This document shows positions 508-21,248 of a stretch of DNA of 21,588 bases, one piece after another. The notes under the pieces are model-generated. The model saw only the letters and a list, made by a program, of their open reading frames with translations. It was not told the origin of the DNA and made no database searches. Numbering within the stretch: the first letter of the stretch is position 1; every line of letters begins with the position of its first letter. This DNA is from Jaenimonas drosophilae. Its lineage: Eukaryota > Euglenozoa > Kinetoplastea > Trypanosomatida > Trypanosomatidae. The translations under genes and the position numbers were made by a program. The DNA is taken from positions 1 to 21,588 of the forward strand of contig JASAON010001406.1 in the NCBI GenBank assembly GCA_030849065.1, given 5' to 3'.

Positions 508-630
508 ATGCGTGAAATCGTGTCCTGCCAGGCCGGCCAGTGCGGTAACCAGATTGGTTCCAAGTTCTGGGAAGTCATCGCCGACGAGCACGGCGTGGAC
601 CCCACCGGCACCTACCATGAAGAACACTGA
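508..630 (+). pseudogene. Truncated beta-tubulin, N-terminal fragment (40 codons)
   Basis: The frame starts with ATG and reads [20 protein letters not shown] and onward through [17 protein letters not shown]. This is the conserved beta-tubulin N-terminus, including the first GTP-binding segment around QAGQCGNQ. After about codon 37 the tubulin sequence stops abruptly, and four unrelated residues (HEEH) precede a TGA at 628-630. A full beta-tubulin is about 443 residues, so over 90% is missing, and I find no later tubulin piece in the window. The Ser-Cys pair after MREIV and the Ala in IADEHG match, from memory, the Leishmania/Crithidia type rather than the Trypanosoma type. The remaining codons are undamaged and strongly C/G-ending, so the break is recent, or the end is kept intact by gene conversion with an array, or it is an assembly junction. 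It keeps the MREI start that tubulin mRNA autoregulation recognises in animals. Confidence 0.9.
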
Positions 631-1033
631 TTGTGTTTCTCTTGCTGGCTAAGCGGATGTGTGGTGTGAATGATCCCCTGTGAAATGAAGCGGTAGCGTC
701 TTGTGCATAGATGGCTGCTCTATCTGTTCTGTTTTCTTTCATGTGAGTAGGCCAGTTTGCTTGTTGGAAGATTGCACAAGAGTGAGGTATAGGTGGTTGG
801 TAGGGCACGACAGCGTAACAGGTGGTTGTGCTCGGTCTATATTGTTTTGGTGTTGGTATCAAATATCACAGCTGAGTAGTGCGTGTAGCTACCGCCATAA
901 TCAATAGTGAAGGCTGTACGTGTTGCGTTGCGGGCAACTCGTTGTCTTGTTTGTGAAGGGCTCTTTGGTGAGTAGTTTGTCAGGTTTTGTAGTTTGCTGG
1001 CCTTCCCTCCTTGTAGCATCGTTTGGCGTTGCT
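631..1033 (+). other. Spacer and leader of the AA10-like gene
   Basis: No gene is visible. ATGs occur up to 740-742 (around 669, 685, 710, 740), and then none until 1034. The last 290 nt could therefore be the 5' leader of the next gene. The GC-poor, repeat-poor texture differs from the microsatellite-rich spacers further right. Confidence 0.5.
1001..1016 (+). promoter_or_regulatory. Candidate spliced-leader acceptor for the AA10-like gene
   Basis: The tract CCTTCCCTCCTTGTAG ends in AG at 1015-1016, 17 nt before the ATG at 1034. This is the best pyrimidine-AG signal in the 290-nt ATG-free stretch and fixes 1034 as the first ATG of the mRNA. Earlier AGs (for example around 973 and 991) are weaker alternatives. 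Confidence 0.55.
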
Positions 1034-1642
1034 ATGGGGTCTGCAATGTACGAATTCGTGCACGACCGCCGTTCTGGTTGTACCTGCGTTGTGGTTGGGG
1101 TGATGCTGATACTTCTGGTTCCACCAACAGAGGCTCGTGGCTATGTGGTGAATCCCCCAAGTCGTGCCTACTTATGCTACGTCCACAAGAATGAAAGCTG
1201 TGGTGCTGCCCGTGATGACCCCGTGATGGAATCAACACGCCACTTCCCACGCTTTGGTCCTCGTGACGGCCATCTTGTTGGCGGGAAGCGTATGCCGGAG
1301 CTGGACAGGGAAGGTGTTCGCTGGCCACTCACAACCATCTCAACGACGGAAGTCGTGGAGTTTGTGTGGCATCTTCAAGTTTCGCACCCTACATTACGGT
1401 GGTTTTACTACATCACCCAGCTCACCTGGAACGGTACCCTTCCTCTTACCCGTAATGATTTTATGGTGGAACCGTTTTGTGTTGCTGACGAAGAAGGAAG
1501 GGTGCCCCCGCCGGTGGTTGTGCACCGTTGCAAGCTTCCCCCAACGCACGAGGGCTACCACGTGGTTCTTGCCATTTGGGAGATCGCGGATAGTATTGCG
1601 GGCCACTACCAGGCGATTGACATGTGGCTCAGTAACAAGTGA
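1034..1642 (+). CDS. Secreted AA10-type (LPMO/chitin-binding 4) protein with Arg at position 1
   Basis: This 202-aa protein has a signal peptide (hydrophobic core about residues 16-29, likely cleavage after TEA at residue 34) and a 168-residue mature domain matching the length of a single-domain AA10. Family landmarks are in order: GYVVNPPSRAYLC at the start, GPRDG (75-79), WHLQVSH (112-118), WFYYIT (123-128), TWNGTLPLTR (131-140), PFC (147-149), GYHVVLAIWEIAD (174-186) and YQAID (192-196). Four Cys (48, 56, 149, 166) sit where the chitin-active bacterial protein CBP21 has its two disulfides, and Glu66 aligns with its active-site Glu. AA10 enzymes bind copper with the N-terminal His and a second His. 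His118 is the second, but the first is Arg35 (CGT, 1136-1138), and the axial Phe position is His191. Sequons are at N53 and N133. I infer a secreted binding protein, or one with altered chemistry, rather than a normal LPMO. The frame is open upstream to 920 but has no earlier ATG. GC at third codon positions is about 57% by hand count, so composition gives no strong sign of recent transfer. Confidence 0.88.
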   Translation: MGSAMYEFVHDRRSGCTCVVVGVMLILLVPPTEARGYVVNPPSRAYLCYVHKNESCGAARDDPVMESTRHFPRFGPRDGHLVGGKRMPELDREGVRWPLTTISTTEVVEFVWHLQVSHPTLRWFYYITQLTWNGTLPLTRNDFMVEPFCVADEEGRVPPPVVVHRCKLPPTHEGYHVVLAIWEIADSIAGHYQAIDMWLSNK

Positions 1643-11076: not shown

Positions 11077-12915
11077 ATGGATCTCGACGGAGAAGATGCA
11101 TCCGACGCTTGCCTGCTGCTCGGCGACGATGAAACGCCGGCGGTGCCACCCTCGCTCATGTGTTCTGCCCCCGTGATGGATCTGTGCTTCCACCCGCAGC
11201 TGCCCATCCTCGCCGCCGGCCTCGTGACGGGTGAGGTGGAGATTTATGAGTGTACCGACCAGGAGACCATCAAGAAGCCCATGCAGAACGACTTTGGTTC
11301 GTGGATTTTCGGCCCCAACAAGACCTACTCTGAGCAGGATGATATTGTGCTGAATTATCATCATCAAAACATGCGCATGCACCCATCGGGTGGCATCTCG
11401 TCGATGGAGTTCACCGACGATGGGGTGTACCTGGTGTCGGCGAGTAGCGATCGCACCATCTCCGTGATGGATTGTGTCTCAGCCCGCCTGGTGATTCACA
11501 TCAACGCCTCACAAATGGAGTCGTTGTCGGAGAAGAGCAAGAAGAAGCTCAAGACACCGGTGCCGAGTAGGCGAAAGCCGCTGAAGCGAGGCAAGAAGGG
11601 GGCGGCGGCGATGGAGGTGGTGAACCCGCACAAACATGGCGTTTCCGCGCTGAATGTTTGCGATGAAAATCTCATCGCCACCGGAGACGATGATGGGCTC
11701 ATCGCCATTTGGGATATGCGTGAGCGACGACCCGTACACACCTACCACGAACACGCCGACTACGTCTCGCAGCTGTGCTACTTCACCGATGTGGCGGAGC
11801 TCGTCTCGAGCAGCGGTGATACCTGCCTCGGCGTCTATGACCTCCGCGGCGCACGCATTCGCGACTTCAGTGAGAAGCGAAAAGATGAGATTAGCTGCTT
11901 CGCCTTCATCAACGCCTCTGGCGCCAACAGCAGCTCCTTCATTCCTAGTATTCTCTGTGGCACCCCAACAGGCACGTTGCCCATGTGGAAGTACGGCTCG
12001 TGGCGTCGTCCCTACGATGCGATGGAGTACCACCCGAAGGAGTGCGAATCCATCATCTCCTTCCATGGCGAAGACACCGCCTTCAACCACAACCTTGTTC
12101 TGACTGGGGCCTGCGATGGTTTGGTGCGTGTGATTCAGATGTACCCGCTCCGACGCAACCTCTGCCAGCTCAGTGCGCGCGACTACAGCTACAACCACGC
12201 CAACTCCTCCACGGGGTCGGGGGGAAGCGGGAGTAGCAGCTACCACAACAGCAACTTCATCACGAAGAAGAAGAGAGGCCATGAGGGGATTCGTCATATG
12301 CGTCTTCGGCATGATTCACGTGTGTTGGCGGTGTCAGGAACGGATAATATCGTGGATTTTGTAGATGTGCGGTTCCTCACGGATGAAAAGATGCTCGATG
12401 AGCTGCGCGGGAAGGCGGAGCGGCGCCACATGACAACCATCCGCAACATGGAGCGCGAGAAGGCAGAGACAGAGGAGCGTGAGCGTCTGGCGGCAGAGGC
12501 AGGCTCCGACGACAGCGATGATGATGATGATGATGATGATGATTCCAGCAGCGATGATGGAAGCAGCAGCAGCAGCAGTGATGATGATGATGATGGCAAC
12601 ATGGCTGCCAAGTTCGCACGTCGCGAGGTGGCGCGGAAGGCAGCCAAGCGCGCCACTGCCAAGGTCGTGGATGATGCTCAACCAACAAGAAAGACGAAGA
12701 AGGCTCCCGCCACAGTAGTTGCGGCAGCACCGGAGCGTACTCCAGATGACTACATGGAGGAGATCAAGCTTGACCGCCAGACGAAGCGCGAACGTGTGGC
12801 GGCGGCCAAGTGGCTGAAGCTGGAGAAGAAGAAGAAGATTCATTTTGGCTTCGAGAAGCGTCGTCGTCGCGTTGGTGGCTTCTTTGGTGATATGGCCAAC
12901 GGCGGCGGCGAATGA
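11077..12915 (+). CDS. WDR55: WDR55/Jip5-like WD-repeat protein
   Basis: The 612-aa protein opens, after an acidic leader, with APVMDLCFHPQLPILAAGLV (31-50), the typical first blade of the WDR55/Jip5 family. Further blades are visible at about 105-140 (SASSDRTISVMD), 185-222 (ATGDDDGLIAIWD), 226-260 (SSSGDTCLGVYD), 270-308 (CGTPTGTLPMWK), 324-358 (TGACDGLVRVIQM) and 402-433 (SGTDNIVDFVD), seven in all. A basic insert at 152-175 interrupts the second blade and a Gly/Ser insert (378-393) the last. The C-terminus has a long Asp/Ser tract (478-506), then Lys/Arg-rich segments, and ends with RVGGFFGDM, resembling the Phe-Phe-Ala-Asp-Leu/Met end of WDR55/Jip5. In other eukaryotes these are nucleolar proteins of ribosome biogenesis; acidic and basic tails fit a nucleolar protein. 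Family assignment is good; function in this organism is inferred. Confidence 0.87.
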   Translation: MDLDGEDASDACLLLGDDETPAVPPSLMCSAPVMDLCFHPQLPILAAGLVTGEVEIYECTDQETIKKPMQNDFGSWIFGPNKTYSEQDDIVLNYHHQNMRMHPSGGISSMEFTDDGVYLVSASSDRTISVMDCVSARLVIHINASQMESLSEKSKKKLKTPVPSRRKPLKRGKKGAAAMEVVNPHKHGVSALNVCDENLIATGDDDGLIAIWDMRERRPVHTYHEHADYVSQLCYFTDVAELVSSSGDTCLGVYDLRGARIRDFSEKRKDEISCFAFINASGANSSSFIPSILCGTPTGTLPMWKYGSWRRPYDAMEYHPKECESIISFHGEDTAFNHNLVLTGACDGLVRVIQMYPLRRNLCQLSARDYSYNHANSSTGSGGSGSSSYHNSNFITKKKRGHEGIRHMRLRHDSRVLAVSGTDNIVDFVDVRFLTDEKMLDELRGKAERRHMTTIRNMEREKAETEERERLAAEAGSDDSDDDDDDDDDSSSDDGSSSSSSDDDDDGNMAAKFARREVARKAAKRATAKVVDDAQPTRKTKKAPATVVAAAPERTPDDYMEEIKLDRQTKRERVAAAKWLKLEKKKKIHFGFEKRRRRVGGFFGDMANGGGE

Positions 12916-15803: not shown

Positions 15804-18800
15804 ATGAGTGAGCCCACAACATCCACGGAGAGGCTCGCCATTCTCTACGGCTCTGAAACTGGTAACAGTGAAAGCATCGCCAAACGCCTGCATCATGCAG
15901 CAGTACATAACCACGGCCACCCCGACGCGCTCTGCCTCACGCTGAATCAGGCCATCACCAAGAAGATCCTCGACGGCCAATGCAGCGAGGAGGCCACCCC
16001 GCTCTGCCTCGTTATTGTGTGCAGCACAACGGGCGAGGGTGAGCCGCCGGAGAACGCCGCCCGCTTCCGTCGCTGGTTGCGCAACCACCCAACCACCACA
16101 CCCTTGCACCACCTCCGCTTCACGGTGTTGGCCCTTGGAGATACCAACTACAACAACTTCTGTGCCGCGGGCATCTACATGGATAATAAGCTCCATGAAG
16201 CGGGTGGGGTGCGCTTCTACGCACGTGGGGAGGCTGATGATGGCATCGGGCTGGACCTCGTCGTGGAGCCGTGGATGGAGCACCTCTGGCCCGCCATGAT
16301 TGGCCAGCCGGAACAAGGCGTCAGCCACACACGCTACCAAACCACCAACATCACGGAACAACGGTGGAACATGGCCGTGGCACAGGAGGTGCTCATCCTC
16401 TACGACTGCAACTCACTCCTCTGCTCCACGTACGCCCTCTACGTGTATGAGCGGCTGACAGAGCTGGGCGGTGTAGGTGAGCTGCAGCCGGTGCAGCACC
16501 TCGTGGTGGAGCGTCTTGCACGTACACCAAAGTTGCTGTTGTTGTTGGCCTCCGCCGATGCTGGCGCGGATGGTGCTCAGGCGATGAGCACACAGCACAA
16601 GCCTGACGCGGAGGTGGGCGGCGGCGCTCCATCACCATCATCACCATCATCATCATCCACGACGTCCATGTGGATGGATCTGCAAGCGTGGCTCGCCGTG
16701 GCGGGCCTTCGTGCCGCTCAGAGCCTTTGCATCCTTACCTCCCCCGCCGAGGTGCAGCGTGCCGTGGTGGTGGAGAGTGCGTTGCGTGAGTTGCTGCATG
16801 CGTGCAAGCTAGAGGCCATTGTGCGAAAGGTGCCCCACACCCCAACCATCGCCACCTCCGCCGCCGACCTCCTCTTGTGGTGCGAGGCGGTGCTTGATAC
16901 AACACCGGGCATCACCCACGATACCGCCACCATTCGCGTGGCGCTGGAGCGACGCTTTGGAAAACACGTTCTCCCAGCTCTGCGTCTCGCGAATGCTACG
17001 CATGGCGGTGATGATGATGATGGCATGGCGGCATTTGATGGCAACGAACGCACGCGTGGAGATGCAGAAGAAGGTGGTGCTGACCATGGCCGCCTCCTTC
17101 ACGGGCCCATCCTCAGCGACCTACTCACTCCATTGGTGTTCCTCTACGCCAGCACGGGCAGCCGTCTGAGCGCGGAGGTGGCGCAGCGCATGCACGCCAC
17201 CGCCGAGGAGCACCAACTACGCAGCTCGCTGACGGATATATCCAAGCTGCGCATGACGGGATTCCCACGACGTGCCACCTTCATCTTCATTGTGAATGGC
17301 ATCTCCAAGGCCATGTCGCGTGTGATGAAGGTTCTCCGCGATGGTGTGCGGCGCGGGAAGCATCTCAGCCAGGACAACTTTGCCGGCGTGCGCTTCGCCA
17401 TCCTCGGCATCGATAATGGGCGGCGCAGCGATCACTTCAATCTCTGTGCGCTGGAGCTCGAGACGTTGCTGCTATCCTTGCACGCCACGAAGATTCATGC
17501 CACCGGTCTTGTGGATGAGGGCTGCCAAGATAGCGTGCCGGCTGTGTTGCAGGCGTGGGAGAGCAACCTACTCAGCGCCGTCATGGCACCAACCACGAGC
17601 CGGGCATATCTCGATGCTCAATCTCCCAACATAACCTCCGTGGCGCCCGTCTTTCCGTCTTTTGGCGGCCCGCTGCCACGTGGGGTGGAGGGCGGCGTGG
17701 ATGTTGCCGCGCCGGAAGTGGTGGCGCAGATACTCTCCTCGCCCACCTCTACGCAGAGCTTCGAGCGCATCATCTCGCCCGTGCAGCCAACAACAACAAC
17801 AACTCCCACGAAAACAGAGGGTGGCACACAGACCACCAACAACAACAACCACACCGCGGGCATGCTGATGATGATGATGGAGGATGGAGCAACCAACGCC
17901 ACCACACTTCCCTGGCGGCCGCTCCCGCTCCATCGTGCCAACGTGGCGCACACACCTCTCACGCTCCTCTACGCCTCCTCGGGCATGCCCAAGGCGATGG
18001 CGCTCCACGCGTGCAAGGCGGCGCAGGAGATGGGCTTCGTTGCCACAACACACTCCCTCGCAGACACACAACGCATGGATTTTTCACAACACCCGAACCT
18101 CCTTCTCTTCTGCGAGGGTGGGCGGTTAGCGGGGCAAAACCGCGGTGCGCAGCTCCTGCGGCGATCCTTGTTGCATCCATCGCGCCGCCCCGACGCGCTC
18201 TCCTTCGTTCGCTTCTCCATCCTGGGTCTTGGCGCGGTGGAGCCCGCACACACACATCCAGCCTTTCAGTGGGCGGGATTGTTGGCGCGATTGCAGGCCA
18301 ACCGTGTCTTTCCTGTTGTCGTGATGCGCTCCATGTCGCAGCTGCACTCGTTTGGTTTGCCGTGGTGCGAGTGCGCCATGGCTGCCATGGCCGCACAACC
18401 CCCGCTGCTCGTGCCACCATCCAACAACAACACCAACACCAACACTGCAACAACAAGAGATGATGATGGTGCTGCTGCTGCTGCTGCCACCAACAAGGAT
18501 GCAACATTGGTGCAGCCCACGACGAATGATGTGCCGAGTGATGGTGCCAAGGTGCTCTTCTTATTTGGCAGCTCCACCGGCATGGCGGAGGCCATCGCGC
18601 GAGATCTTCATCAGCAGGCGCTGCAACTGGGCTACGCCTCTCGCGTCGCTGCGCTGAAATTTTTCGAGAAGATGAGTTTCTTGACCACCCCACACGTCAT
18701 TATTGTGTGCAGCACCACCAACCTCCACGTGGGTGGCTTTCCGAGCAACGCACGCAAGTTCGCGCAGTACCTCCAACTCCGCGCACAACCACGGAATCTC

Positions 18801-21248
18801 CTCACGGGGACGCACTACGCCGTGTTGGGTGTTGGCAATGAATCTGCCTACCCGCACACGTTTTGTAGCGCGGCGATTCGCATCGATGCACGCTTGGAGG
18901 AGCTTGGTGGGCGGCGCATCTGTGAAATGGGCCGGCTGGATGTTTCGCACAGCATTCTGGCACGCATGGCAGCGTGGAGGGTGAGCCTCTTTGATGCGCT
19001 GCGTGCCACCACAACGGAGGCACAAGGAGTGATGGTGGAGGAGGATTCATCCAGTACCTCATGCCCCCATCCTCATCATCATCTTCATCATCCAAGCGCA
19101 TTGGTGCCTCCCGCCTTGCCAACCTCGGAAGGCTGCACAGATGCCTCCTGCCCCTCATCCCCAGCAACGTTGCAGAAGTGGGGTGTGTTGTTGGTGCAGG
19201 GCTCCTCCGACACAAGTGCGGTGATGGGCATCACCGAGCATCTCCGCCAGGTTATTCAGGACAACACCACACTCCAACCCGCCACCTGCACCATGAATGA
19301 GTTTGCCAAGCTCACGTGGCGCACACGCTACCGCCTCATCATCTTTCTCGTTGCGAGCAACGACGAAGGCGATTGTCCGCTCAACGCCACGGCCTTCTTT
19401 CGTTTGCTGCGCCACAAATCCACCCCGCGTGATCTCTTCGCGTCGGTGAGGTACACCGTCATGGCGGTGTCCGATACGAATGAGGGCCGTTTTTATCTGG
19501 GCCGGCAGCTCGATCGGCGTCTCGAGGAGCTCGGCGGGACGAGATGTTTCGCGCGTGGGGAGGCCGTTGATTCGTTTCGTCTCGAGCGCACCGTTGAGCG
19601 CTGGATTCATGGCCTCATGGCCATCCTCGCGGACGCATGCGAGGAGTGCAGCGAAGGCGCGCAACAACAACAACAACAACAACGTGCCATGGCACCATGC
19701 GCCGCCCGCACCACCAACAAGCTTGGCAGTGCCAACTTCAATCACGCCACCACCTCTTCCGACAAGAACAACACCGCGGCTGCTGCCTCCAGCCACGTGG
19801 ATGATGGTGATGGTGCGATGGATGCGGCTGATCTCACGGCCATGGCCGCATCGCCCGTTGATCGCATCGCAGCCTTCATGCCGCGCACCGGCAGCGACGA
19901 GGTGCGCGTGGAGGCTGTTATTGATGGGTGGAGGTGCCTCACTTCCCCACACGTGCAGGAGTGTGGCGGCACCGTTCTTCTGATGCATCTTCGTGTGGCA
20001 CCGGAGGTGGTTTGGGTGCCTGGCCAGACCGTGGCCATTCTCCCACCAAACCCACATGAGGCGGTGCAGCGTGTGTTGCGCTACTTTGATGTGAAGGCTG
20101 AGATGCCCTTTCATCCGCTGAGTGTGGCTGGTGTAGGGAGCAGCTCCTACCCCAACGCACCGCTGTACGAGAGCGTGGATTTTCCCGTGAGCGTCGAGAC
20201 GCTCCTTCTGCGCTACGTTGGCATCACGCTGAGCCCCACCAACAGCCGCGGGCTGATGGAGATGTTGTTGCAACGAAGTGGCGAGCATGCGGAGATGCAG
20301 GAGCGCATCAGGGCCTACTGGCAAGAGATGTGCGCCACACGTGTGCCACGACGTCTTGAGGAGGTGCTCGATGCACTCCCGCACCTGCCCATAACCTTGC
20401 GCCATCTCGTTGAGCACCTCCCGCTGTTGCAGCCACGCATCTACTCCATCTGCAGCTCCAAGTTGGCCACCCCAACACGTTTGTCGCTGTGCTTTAAGGT
20501 GGTGCCACACGGCTTATGCACGCACTGGTTGCTGGATCAGTGTGTGTGGGCCGCACGCCTCTCCACCAACACCAACACCAACACCATGAGTAGTAGTGTA
20601 GCTGCGGCAAGTGCTGGATGGGGCTGCGAGGTACGCGCACAACGTACGTGCGGGCTGAGTTTGGTGTTGCGGCCTACTTCAGACTTCATCATGCCACCGC
20701 AACTCACAACGCCGCTCATTTCAATTGGCCCAGGCACCGGCGTGGCGCCGTTCCGTGCCTTTATCGAAGAGCGCGGGGCGCTGATGCGCCAGCAACAACA
20801 ACAAAGCAACAACAACAACGTGGAGGAGCCATCTACATGTGCTGCCACACTTGGCTCTATGGAGCTCTTCTTTGGTTGCCGTCGTCGTGAGGATGACTTC
20901 TTGTTTGCCGAGGAGCTCGTGGAGGCGGAGCGGTGTGGCATCCTCTCATCGCTGCACGTCGCCTTCTCGCGTGAGCCCAACAATGATGGATCTTTTTGGT
21001 ACGGCGGTTGCTACGTGCAGGATAAGATGTTGGAGGCGGCGGGGGTGCTCGTGGATGTGCTCGTGCATCGCCAAGGACGGCTCTACGTGTGTGGCGATGC
21101 AGAGATGGCGAAGGAGGTGCATCAAACCTTCTTGGATATTTTGCAACAACATCTTTGCATTTCAGCAACAGCAGCGGCCACACTCGTGGAGAACATGGTG
21201 TCGCGTGGGGAGTACCTCCGCGATGTATGGACGACCTCACTGCCATGA
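15804..21248 (+). CDS. Six-flavodoxin diflavin reductase (methionine synthase reductase-like)
   Basis: The 1,814-aa protein has six flavodoxin-like modules and one FAD/NADPH module. Module 1 (about 9-166) keeps all FMN loops: GSETGNS (16-22), CSTTGEGEPPENA (73-85), LGDTNYNNFC (111-120). It ends ADDGIGLDLVVEPW, close to human methionine synthase reductase. Modules 2-6, near 194-368, 442-592, 717-863, 914-1068 and 1125-1276, keep the strand/helix order but lose loops. Module 5 is best preserved (GSSTGMAE 922-929, CSTTN 969-973, VGNESAYPHTFC 1010-1021); module 6 keeps only traces (SNDEG, SDTNEG). Modules are joined by Asn/Ser/Thr/His/Gln-rich linkers. The FAD/NADPH part (about 1360-1814) is complete: PGQTVAILPP (1406-1415), RIYSI (1545-1549), GLCTHW (1570-1575), GPGTGVAPFRAF (1642-1653), SRE (1722-1724), YVQDK (1737-1741), YVCGDAEMAKEV (1761-1772), and a C-terminal DVW (1807-1809), where this family has its flavin-shielding Trp. 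It should move electrons from NADPH through FAD to FMN in module 1. Usual relatives are 600-750 residues. The partner is unknown; methionine synthase, a P450 or a heme protein are options. Confidence 0.92.
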   Translation: MSEPTTSTERLAILYGSETGNSESIAKRLHHAAVHNHGHPDALCLTLNQAITKKILDGQCSEEATPLCLVIVCSTTGEGEPPENAARFRRWLRNHPTTTPLHHLRFTVLALGDTNYNNFCAAGIYMDNKLHEAGGVRFYARGEADDGIGLDLVVEPWMEHLWPAMIGQPEQGVSHTRYQTTNITEQRWNMAVAQEVLILYDCNSLLCSTYALYVYERLTELGGVGELQPVQHLVVERLARTPKLLLLLASADAGADGAQAMSTQHKPDAEVGGGAPSPSSPSSSSTTSMWMDLQAWLAVAGLRAAQSLCILTSPAEVQRAVVVESALRELLHACKLEAIVRKVPHTPTIATSAADLLLWCEAVLDTTPGITHDTATIRVALERRFGKHVLPALRLANATHGGDDDDGMAAFDGNERTRGDAEEGGADHGRLLHGPILSDLLTPLVFLYASTGSRLSAEVAQRMHATAEEHQLRSSLTDISKLRMTGFPRRATFIFIVNGISKAMSRVMKVLRDGVRRGKHLSQDNFAGVRFAILGIDNGRRSDHFNLCALELETLLLSLHATKIHATGLVDEGCQDSVPAVLQAWESNLLSAVMAPTTSRAYLDAQSPNITSVAPVFPSFGGPLPRGVEGGVDVAAPEVVAQILSSPTSTQSFERIISPVQPTTTTTPTKTEGGTQTTNNNNHTAGMLMMMMEDGATNATTLPWRPLPLHRANVAHTPLTLLYASSGMPKAMALHACKAAQEMGFVATTHSLADTQRMDFSQHPNLLLFCEGGRLAGQNRGAQLLRRSLLHPSRRPDALSFVRFSILGLGAVEPAHTHPAFQWAGLLARLQANRVFPVVVMRSMSQLHSFGLPWCECAMAAMAAQPPLLVPPSNNNTNTNTATTRDDDGAAAAAATNKDATLVQPTTNDVPSDGAKVLFLFGSSTGMAEAIARDLHQQALQLGYASRVAALKFFEKMSFLTTPHVIIVCSTTNLHVGGFPSNARKFAQYLQLRAQPRNLLTGTHYAVLGVGNESAYPHTFCSAAIRIDARLEELGGRRICEMGRLDVSHSILARMAAWRVSLFDALRATTTEAQGVMVEEDSSSTSCPHPHHHLHHPSALVPPALPTSEGCTDASCPSSPATLQKWGVLLVQGSSDTSAVMGITEHLRQVIQDNTTLQPATCTMNEFAKLTWRTRYRLIIFLVASNDEGDCPLNATAFFRLLRHKSTPRDLFASVRYTVMAVSDTNEGRFYLGRQLDRRLEELGGTRCFARGEAVDSFRLERTVERWIHGLMAILADACEECSEGAQQQQQQQRAMAPCAARTTNKLGSANFNHATTSSDKNNTAAAASSHVDDGDGAMDAADLTAMAASPVDRIAAFMPRTGSDEVRVEAVIDGWRCLTSPHVQECGGTVLLMHLRVAPEVVWVPGQTVAILPPNPHEAVQRVLRYFDVKAEMPFHPLSVAGVGSSSYPNAPLYESVDFPVSVETLLLRYVGITLSPTNSRGLMEMLLQRSGEHAEMQERIRAYWQEMCATRVPRRLEEVLDALPHLPITLRHLVEHLPLLQPRIYSICSSKLATPTRLSLCFKVVPHGLCTHWLLDQCVWAARLSTNTNTNTMSSSVAAASAGWGCEVRAQRTCGLSLVLRPTSDFIMPPQLTTPLISIGPGTGVAPFRAFIEERGALMRQQQQQSNNNNVEEPSTCAATLGSMELFFGCRRREDDFLFAEELVEAERCGILSSLHVAFSREPNNDGSFWYGGCYVQDKMLEAAGVLVDVLVHRQGRLYVCGDAEMAKEVHQTFLDILQQHLCISATAAATLVENMVSRGEYLRDVWTTSLP

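What the first reader, a model, noticed from the sequence alone, without database searches (positions are those of the whole stretch)
1034..1642. AA10-type LPMO-like protein in a kinetoplastid with Arg in place of the copper-binding N-terminal His
Seen: the mature N-terminus after a clear signal peptide is Arg-Gly-Tyr-Val, where active AA10 enzymes have His-Gly-Tyr-Val. The rest of the domain, including the second brace His (118), Glu66 and four Cys, is kept. CGT differs from a His codon by one base. Known: both His are needed for the copper brace, and a fungal AA9 subgroup with Arg at position 1 has been described as lacking LPMO activity. Inference: this is an independent AA10 case of the same loss, kept as a secreted, perhaps chitin- or glycan-binding protein. 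That would suit a parasite facing an insect peritrophic matrix or a free-living bacterivore.
Basis: partly seen in the sequence, partly recalled or inferred. Interest (0 to 1): 0.85.

Follow-up and report, generated by a model that had tools for sequence, protein, structure and literature searches.

The report
Secreted chitin-enzyme relative without copper site
A flagellate of the trypanosome group carries genes that look like normal copper enzymes for attacking chitin and, beside them, a relative whose copper-binding face has been rewritten while the protein scaffold was kept, so it is most likely a former enzyme now used for something else.

Summary
Window 1034-1642 encodes a 202-aa AA10-fold protein with a leader (PF03067, 98.7 bits; model pLDDT 94.9; 1.0-1.1 A from CBP21). 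Its mature N-terminus is Arg-Gly-Tyr-Val; all 122 relatives compared (best 120 of 2819 hits plus two paralogues) have His1. Of 44 near-invariant columns, 6 of 11 in a published copper-site model depart, against 3 of 33 elsewhere (p 0.004). A single-base read error cannot explain this. The host is a trypanosomatid. Its genome also encodes a complete AA10 paralogue with His1 and the normal copper face, a second one cut by a contig end, and a GH18 protein. Best reading: horizontal acquisition, duplication, loss of the histidine brace, retention of the fold as a non-oxidative secreted protein. Kinship with the paralogues is favoured but not firm. Chitin binding is doubtful (3 of 6 patch residues left). 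A rearranged metal site (amine, His84, His157) is not excluded. No orthologue was found; selection after the loss is inferred.

The parts
1034..1642 (+). ORF of the Arg1 AA10-fold protein, 202 aa plus stop
   Evidence: first in-frame ATG; in-frame codon score best of six frames
1034..1135 (+). signal peptide (34 aa, ends T-E-A)
   Evidence: sequence; cleavage placed by homology: residue -1 is Ala in 74 of 122 relatives and -3 is Thr in 16 of 122
1136..1639 (+). mature AA10-fold domain, 168 aa, four Cys (mature 14, 22, 115, 132)
1136..1138 (+). CGT, Arg1 in place of brace His1
   Evidence: His in 122 of 122 relatives
1214..1219 (+). Asp27-Asp28 in place of Tyr54-Glu55 of CBP21
   Evidence: Tyr 113, Trp 8, Asn 1 of 122; Glu 122 of 122
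1220..1225 (+). Pro29-Val30: near-invariant Gln between them deleted, Ser replaced by Val
   Evidence: Gln 121 of 122, Ser 122 of 122
1376..1381 (+). Gln81-Val82 in place of Thr111-Ala112 of CBP21
   Evidence: Thr 116 and Ala 119 of 122
1385..1387 (+). His84, second brace histidine, kept
   Evidence: His 120 of 122
1604..1606 (+). CAC, His157 in place of the axial Phe187 of CBP21
   Evidence: Phe 121 of 121 (P0002 is cut before this column)
1001..1016 (+). pyrimidine-rich tract ending in AG, possible trans-splice acceptor
   Evidence: read from the sequence; inference

Best explanation
This is a pseudo-LPMO. A bacterial-type chitin-active AA10 gene entered a trypanosomatid genome and was duplicated. 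One copy lost the copper histidine brace (His1 to Arg) together with the surrounding copper face, while the beta-sandwich fold, disulfides, signal peptide and reading frame were kept. Shown: the sequence changes, their concentration at the copper site, a confidently predicted intact fold, and His1 paralogues in the same genome. Inferred: horizontal origin and one duplication; that it does not bind copper in the usual way and does not cleave glycans; that it is secreted; that selection kept it for a non-oxidative job, such as binding a glycan or protein surface, perhaps alongside the His1 paralogues and the GH18 protein.
For: PF03067 over cut-off. Fold within 1.0-1.1 A of CBP21 and PlAA10, residue 1 aligned to the brace His. 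His1 in 122 of 122 relatives. 9 of 44 near-invariant columns changed, 6 of 11 at the published PlAA10 copper-site residues against 3 of 33 elsewhere, one-sided Fisher p 0.0038 (residue list from a passage of PMC9131454). His1 paralogues P0001 and P0002 in the same genome, on a contig with gamma-tubulin complex, DEAD helicase, 2-oxoglutarate dehydrogenase and CFAP298 genes. On one fixed alignment, leaving out 16 face columns shortens this protein's end branch from 2.38 to 1.41, while leaving out 16 random others, three draws, gave 2.56 to 3.04. Frame open although 237 of 498 aligned bases differ from the paralogue; under substitution-only neutral simulation 0.26% of runs stay open, 2.8% at half that number, 14% at a quarter.
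Against: No orthologue, so constraint after the loss is not measured. dS to the paralogue is near saturation (dN 0.61, dS 1.70). Codon bias is the weakest of the seven window genes scored (GC3s 0.545), though the GH18 gene scores the same. Grouping with the paralogues is unsteady: absent from the tree on re-aligned rows (not rejected, AU p 0.212), weakly present on the fixed alignment (75/78), 85/93 without the face columns, and present in 1 of 3 random-deletion controls. The 16 columns were chosen after seeing the departures. No expression data. Asp at the Tyr54 position also occurs in a bacterial His1 relative (L032), so that change alone says little.
Confidence: 0.74

Rival explanations
1. 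Rearranged metal site: the N-terminal amine of Arg1, His84 and the new His157 at the axial position form a three-nitrogen site, so a metal is still bound but in another geometry.
For: Axial Phe is His, two bases away from Phe, where 121 of 121 relatives have Phe; PMC11137697 (introduction read) states that all LPMOs have Tyr or Phe there; His84 and the amine remain.
Against: No coordinates could be measured here. His157 might be a surface or packing change. Gln and Ser beside the site are lost as well.
Confidence: 0.14
2. Decaying gene: function was lost recently and the frame has not yet broken.
For: Long branch, weak codon bias, place near a contig end behind a beta-tubulin fragment, no orthologue found.
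Against: Nine near-invariant positions changed, six of them at the copper site, while 30 of 33 near-invariant columns elsewhere are kept; a freely drifting gene is expected to lose both alike (inference). Frame open, confident model.
Confidence: 0.1
3. Sequencing, assembly or cleavage artefact: a normal AA10 enzyme misread at position 1.
For: CGT is one base from CAT; single assembly; the window is a whole contig with a tubulin fragment near its end.
Against: One base cannot explain eight further departures including a deleted codon and Phe to His. The model puts Arg1 on the brace His.
Confidence: 0.02

Closest known systems
CBP21 (SmAA10A, Serratia marcescens), PlAA10 (Photorhabdus) and the GbpA LPMO domain: chitin-active AA10 LPMOs
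   Different: His1, axial Phe, Ala112, Thr111, Ser58, deleted Gln57, Tyr54, Glu55 and Asn185 equivalents all changed (CBP21 numbering, by alignment)
AA10 paralogues P0001 and P0002 of the same genome (C265)
   Same: Same family; kinship with this protein favoured by some trees
   Different: Both keep His1, Tyr-Glu-Pro-Gln-Ser and Ala-Pro-His; P0001 also keeps Asn-Ala-Phe-Tyr, a part that P0002, cut by the contig end after 135 aa, does not reach; 41.7% and 38.9% identity in the mature domain
Arg-AA9 proteins of fungi (Frandsen et al. 2019, not held; known here through a passage of PMC6950343)
   Same: Arg in place of the N-terminal His; the passage says no activity was identified for the one characterised
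   Different: Family AA9, fungal; whether its axial residue or wider face changed was not checked here
SpCBP28 of Serratia proteamaculans (PMC3348882, passages read)
   Same: CBM33/AA10-family protein short of the CBP21 patch residues; did not bind the tested chitins or cellulose
   Different: Keeps one patch residue by that paper; its position 1 was not checked here

Membership tests
AA10 / LPMO_10 (PF03067), as a sequence family | Profile match over the curated cut-off | tested here: met
   98.7 bits against 23
AA10 / LPMO_10 (PF03067), as a sequence family | AA10 beta-sandwich fold | tested here: met
AA10 LPMO, as an enzyme | N-terminal His1 of the histidine brace | tested here: not met
   Arg1; His in 122 of 122 relatives
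AA10 LPMO, as an enzyme | Second brace His | tested here: met
   His84
AA10 LPMO, as an enzyme | Axial Phe or Tyr | tested here: not met
   His157; Phe in 121 of 121
AA10 LPMO, as an enzyme | Second-sphere Glu/Gln | tested here: met
   Glu32 at the Glu60 position; that this is the second-sphere Glu of the AA10 literature is recalled
AA10 LPMO, as an enzyme | Copper binding and oxidative cleavage | not testable with these tools
   Needs the protein
Chitin-binding CBP21-type surface | Patch Tyr54, Glu55, Glu60, His114, Asp182, Asn185 | tested here: not met
   3 of 6 kept, against 4 to 6 in 122 relatives
Arg-AA9 | Arg at mature position 1 | tested here: met
   CGT at 1136-1138
Arg-AA9 | AA9 family and fold subtype | tested here: not met

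The most novel reading that the evidence does not exclude
The protein has moved its metal site: the imidazole lost at position 1 is made up for by a histidine at the axial position, giving an amine, His84 and His157 site unlike the brace of known LPMOs, used for metal capture or a different chemistry by a trypanosomatid in a chitin-lined gut.
Probability: 0.13. Interest if true: 0.85.

Novelty: new variant of a known kind. Interest (0 to 1): 0.6.

Why it matters
Loss of His1 in LPMO-fold proteins is on record for fungal AA9 (passage of PMC6950343). An AA10 case with a His1 paralogue in the same genome gives a natural pair for asking what the fold does without copper. The finding also puts AA10 genes in a trypanosomatid, beside a GH18 gene. 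The same paper calls AA10 99% bacterial. My searches for LPMO or AA10 with kinetoplastid, trypanosomatid or trypanosom terms listed no paper that by title or abstract start describes a trypanosomatid LPMO; they listed 1 of 1, 19 of 20, 20 of 3,964 and 10 of 14 papers. Chitin handling by such parasites in insect guts is an open field (PMC2408650 on Leishmania chitinase; listing and abstract start only).

Tried and rejected
Orthologue search with the protein alone: 176 candidates, none at E 0.001 or better; this search also missed bacterial relatives of 45% identity found later, so it excludes only close orthologues. A profile of the three genome copies listed 120 of 2819 hits, none named as trypanosomatid (many have no name), although one search shows that trypanosomatid proteins are held.

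Viral contigs: no relative. Genome contigs: 9 loci, all bacterial by title.

Spliced-leader patterns: no match, so kinetoplastid identity rests on the WDR55-like gene. Rfam scan of the window: nothing.

Survey for other AA10s without His1 in two groups of unnamed bacterial genomes; 295 genomes, 91 matches (summed from its genome table); 85 start at profile position 1, one of these a fragment. Of the 6 others, 4 were fetched and all have His at the leader end; 2 are partial and were not assessed; 295 genomes; the 150 matches listed (my count) all start at position 1; further matches were not listed. Starting at position 1 is a proxy for His1, not a reading of it.

First version of the tree argument mended: comparing (rows re-aligned) overstated the effect of the face columns. 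One search ran the same fixed alignment with all columns (end branch 2.38, grouping 75/78) and three random deletions of 16 columns (2.57, 3.04, 2.56; grouping found in one, 88/60). The shortening to 1.41 stands; the grouping is only favoured.

GH19: no match, but the control rang nowhere, so this says nothing.

Rejected: a plain read error (see rivals); an alternative mature N-terminus at the His in the leader, which lies before the hydrophobic stretch.

Could not do: coordinates of the model are not given, so the His84 to His157 distance was not measured. The Arg-AA9 paper is not held.

Full report
What is there. The window is the whole of contig C115 (21588 bases) of an 18.8 Mb, 370-contig assembly. 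Bases 1034-1642 encode a 202-aa protein that matches PF03067 with 98.7 bits. After a hydrophobic leader ending T-E-A comes R-G-Y-V; the Arg codon is CGT at 1136-1138. The frame scores best of the six for host codon use. A pyrimidine-rich tract ending in AG at 1015-1016 lies just before the first in-frame ATG, as a trans-spliced gene would have (read from the sequence, inference).

Host. The WDR55-like gene at 11077-12912 has its best named matches in trypanosomatids (Phytomonas, Lotmaria, Strigomonas, Porcisia, Leptomonas, Leishmania, Angomonas, Trypanosoma), with Bodo saltans lower. The genus is not known. Two spliced-leader patterns gave no match.

Paralogues. The genome search found three PF03067 genes. 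The other two lie at the two ends of C265: P0001, 204 aa, complete, and P0002, cut by the contig end after 135 aa. Both have Asp-Ala before His-Gly-Tyr-Val. C265 also carries genes for a gamma-tubulin complex component, a DEAD helicase, 2-oxoglutarate dehydrogenase E1, CFAP298 and a family 25 glycosyltransferase, so the AA10 genes appear to sit in the flagellate's genome rather than in a bacterial contaminant. One GH18 gene was found, on C356.

How unusual the protein is. I compared it with 122 relatives: the best 120 of 2819 hits of a three-sequence profile plus P0001 and P0002. That sample is biased towards good matches. Position 1 is His in 122 of 122. Among 44 columns at least 95% conserved (one of them a Gln that this protein lacks), it departs at 9 and keeps 35, including the second brace His, Glu32, Asp152 and Cys14 and Cys22; Cys115 and Cys132, each conserved in 101 of 122, are present too. 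In the earlier count over 43 columns, which leaves out the Gln, it departs at 8, while no relative departs at more than 4 and their median is 0. To avoid choosing the copper face myself I used the 17 residues of a published active-site model of PlAA10 (PMC9131454, passage), mapped through the alignment. Eleven of the 17 fall on near-invariant columns; 6 of these 11 depart, against 3 of the other 33 (one-sided Fisher p 0.0038). The axial residue is His where 121 of 121 relatives have Phe, and a paper on second-sphere residues says that all LPMOs have Tyr or Phe there (PMC11137697, introduction).

Chitin surface. Of the six CBP21 patch residues listed in PMC3348882 (passages), this protein keeps three; the 122 relatives keep six (101 rows), five (19) or four (2). 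Against weighing single changes too much: a bacterial relative with His1 has Asp at the Tyr54 position (L032), and two of the 122 lack the second brace His (P0042, P0071).

Origin. On re-aligned rows the protein has an end branch of 2.97 against a median of 0.19 and no supported place; grouping with the two paralogues is not rejected (p-AU 0.212), nor is grouping with P0005, P0007 and P0009 (0.145). On one fixed alignment with all columns the branch is 2.38 and the three genome copies group together weakly, 75/78. With 16 face columns left out, chosen after seeing the departures, the branch falls to 1.41 and the grouping has 85/93, not starred. Three controls that left out 16 random other columns gave branches of 2.57, 3.04 and 2.56, with the grouping in one of the three. 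So the excess change is concentrated in the face, and one acquisition followed by duplication is favoured, not shown. The nearest named relatives are bacterial; five of the 120 listed hits come from eukaryote transcriptomes, and the four of these put in the tree lie elsewhere in it.

Constraint. Against P0001 the protein differs at 237 of 498 aligned bases, with dN 0.61 and dS 1.70. If all 237 differences had fallen at random, 0.26% of simulated sequences would be free of stops; with half of them, 2.8%; with a quarter, 14% (substitutions only). This suggests that much of the divergence happened under coding constraint. Whether constraint continued after the loss of His1 is inferred from the pattern (face changed, scaffold kept), not measured.

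How it most likely works. Without the His1 imidazole, and with the Gln, Ser, Ala and Phe positions around the copper changed, normal LPMO chemistry is not expected (established knowledge of the histidine brace; PMC6950343 passage, for the AA9 parallel). The protein is most likely secreted and uses the scaffold for binding or for another role. Chitin is a doubtful ligand given the patch. A rearranged site of amine, His84 and His157 cannot be excluded.

Verdict. It is a homologue within PF03067 by sequence and fold, but it fails two defining copper features of an AA10 LPMO, so I do not file it as one. It parallels the Arg-AA9 proteins in another family. I found no report of an AA10 without His1 in my paper searches (listings: 20 of 987 papers, 20 of 90, none; and the passages cited above), nor such a protein among the 122 relatives or the bacterial matches listed and assessable; the held library misses most subscription papers.

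Noticed in passing
window 508-630: A beta-tubulin start of 36 codons followed by four foreign codons and a stop; 507-617 is 99% identical to an intact beta-tubulin start on C343, and contigs C157 and C33 end in the same piece. A rearrangement or an assembly joint at the tubulin repeats.
   Followed up: partly
L025:3413-5056 (minus strand; G000 C356): GH18-family protein of 547 aa whose catalytic motif reads DGVDLNWEYP: Asn where the usual DxxDxDxE motif (recalled) has its last Asp. The chitinase itself may be weakened.
   Followed up: no
L001:1565-1640 and L003:1761-1836 (G000 C265, both ends): The two His1 AA10 genes share an identical run of 76 bases, ending where the contig ends, although the proteins are 77% identical overall: gene conversion, or an assembly joint.
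   Followed up: partly
window 15804-21248: 1814-aa protein with four flavodoxin stretches and FAD and NAD binding reductase domains, an unusual tandem arrangement.
   Followed up: no
P0042, P0071: Two relatives keep His1 but have Arg or Tyr in place of the second brace His: possible brace-less AA10s of the opposite kind.
   Followed up: no
L032 (G219): Bacterial His1 AA10 with Asp at the Tyr54 position (RDEP), as in the window protein.
   Followed up: no
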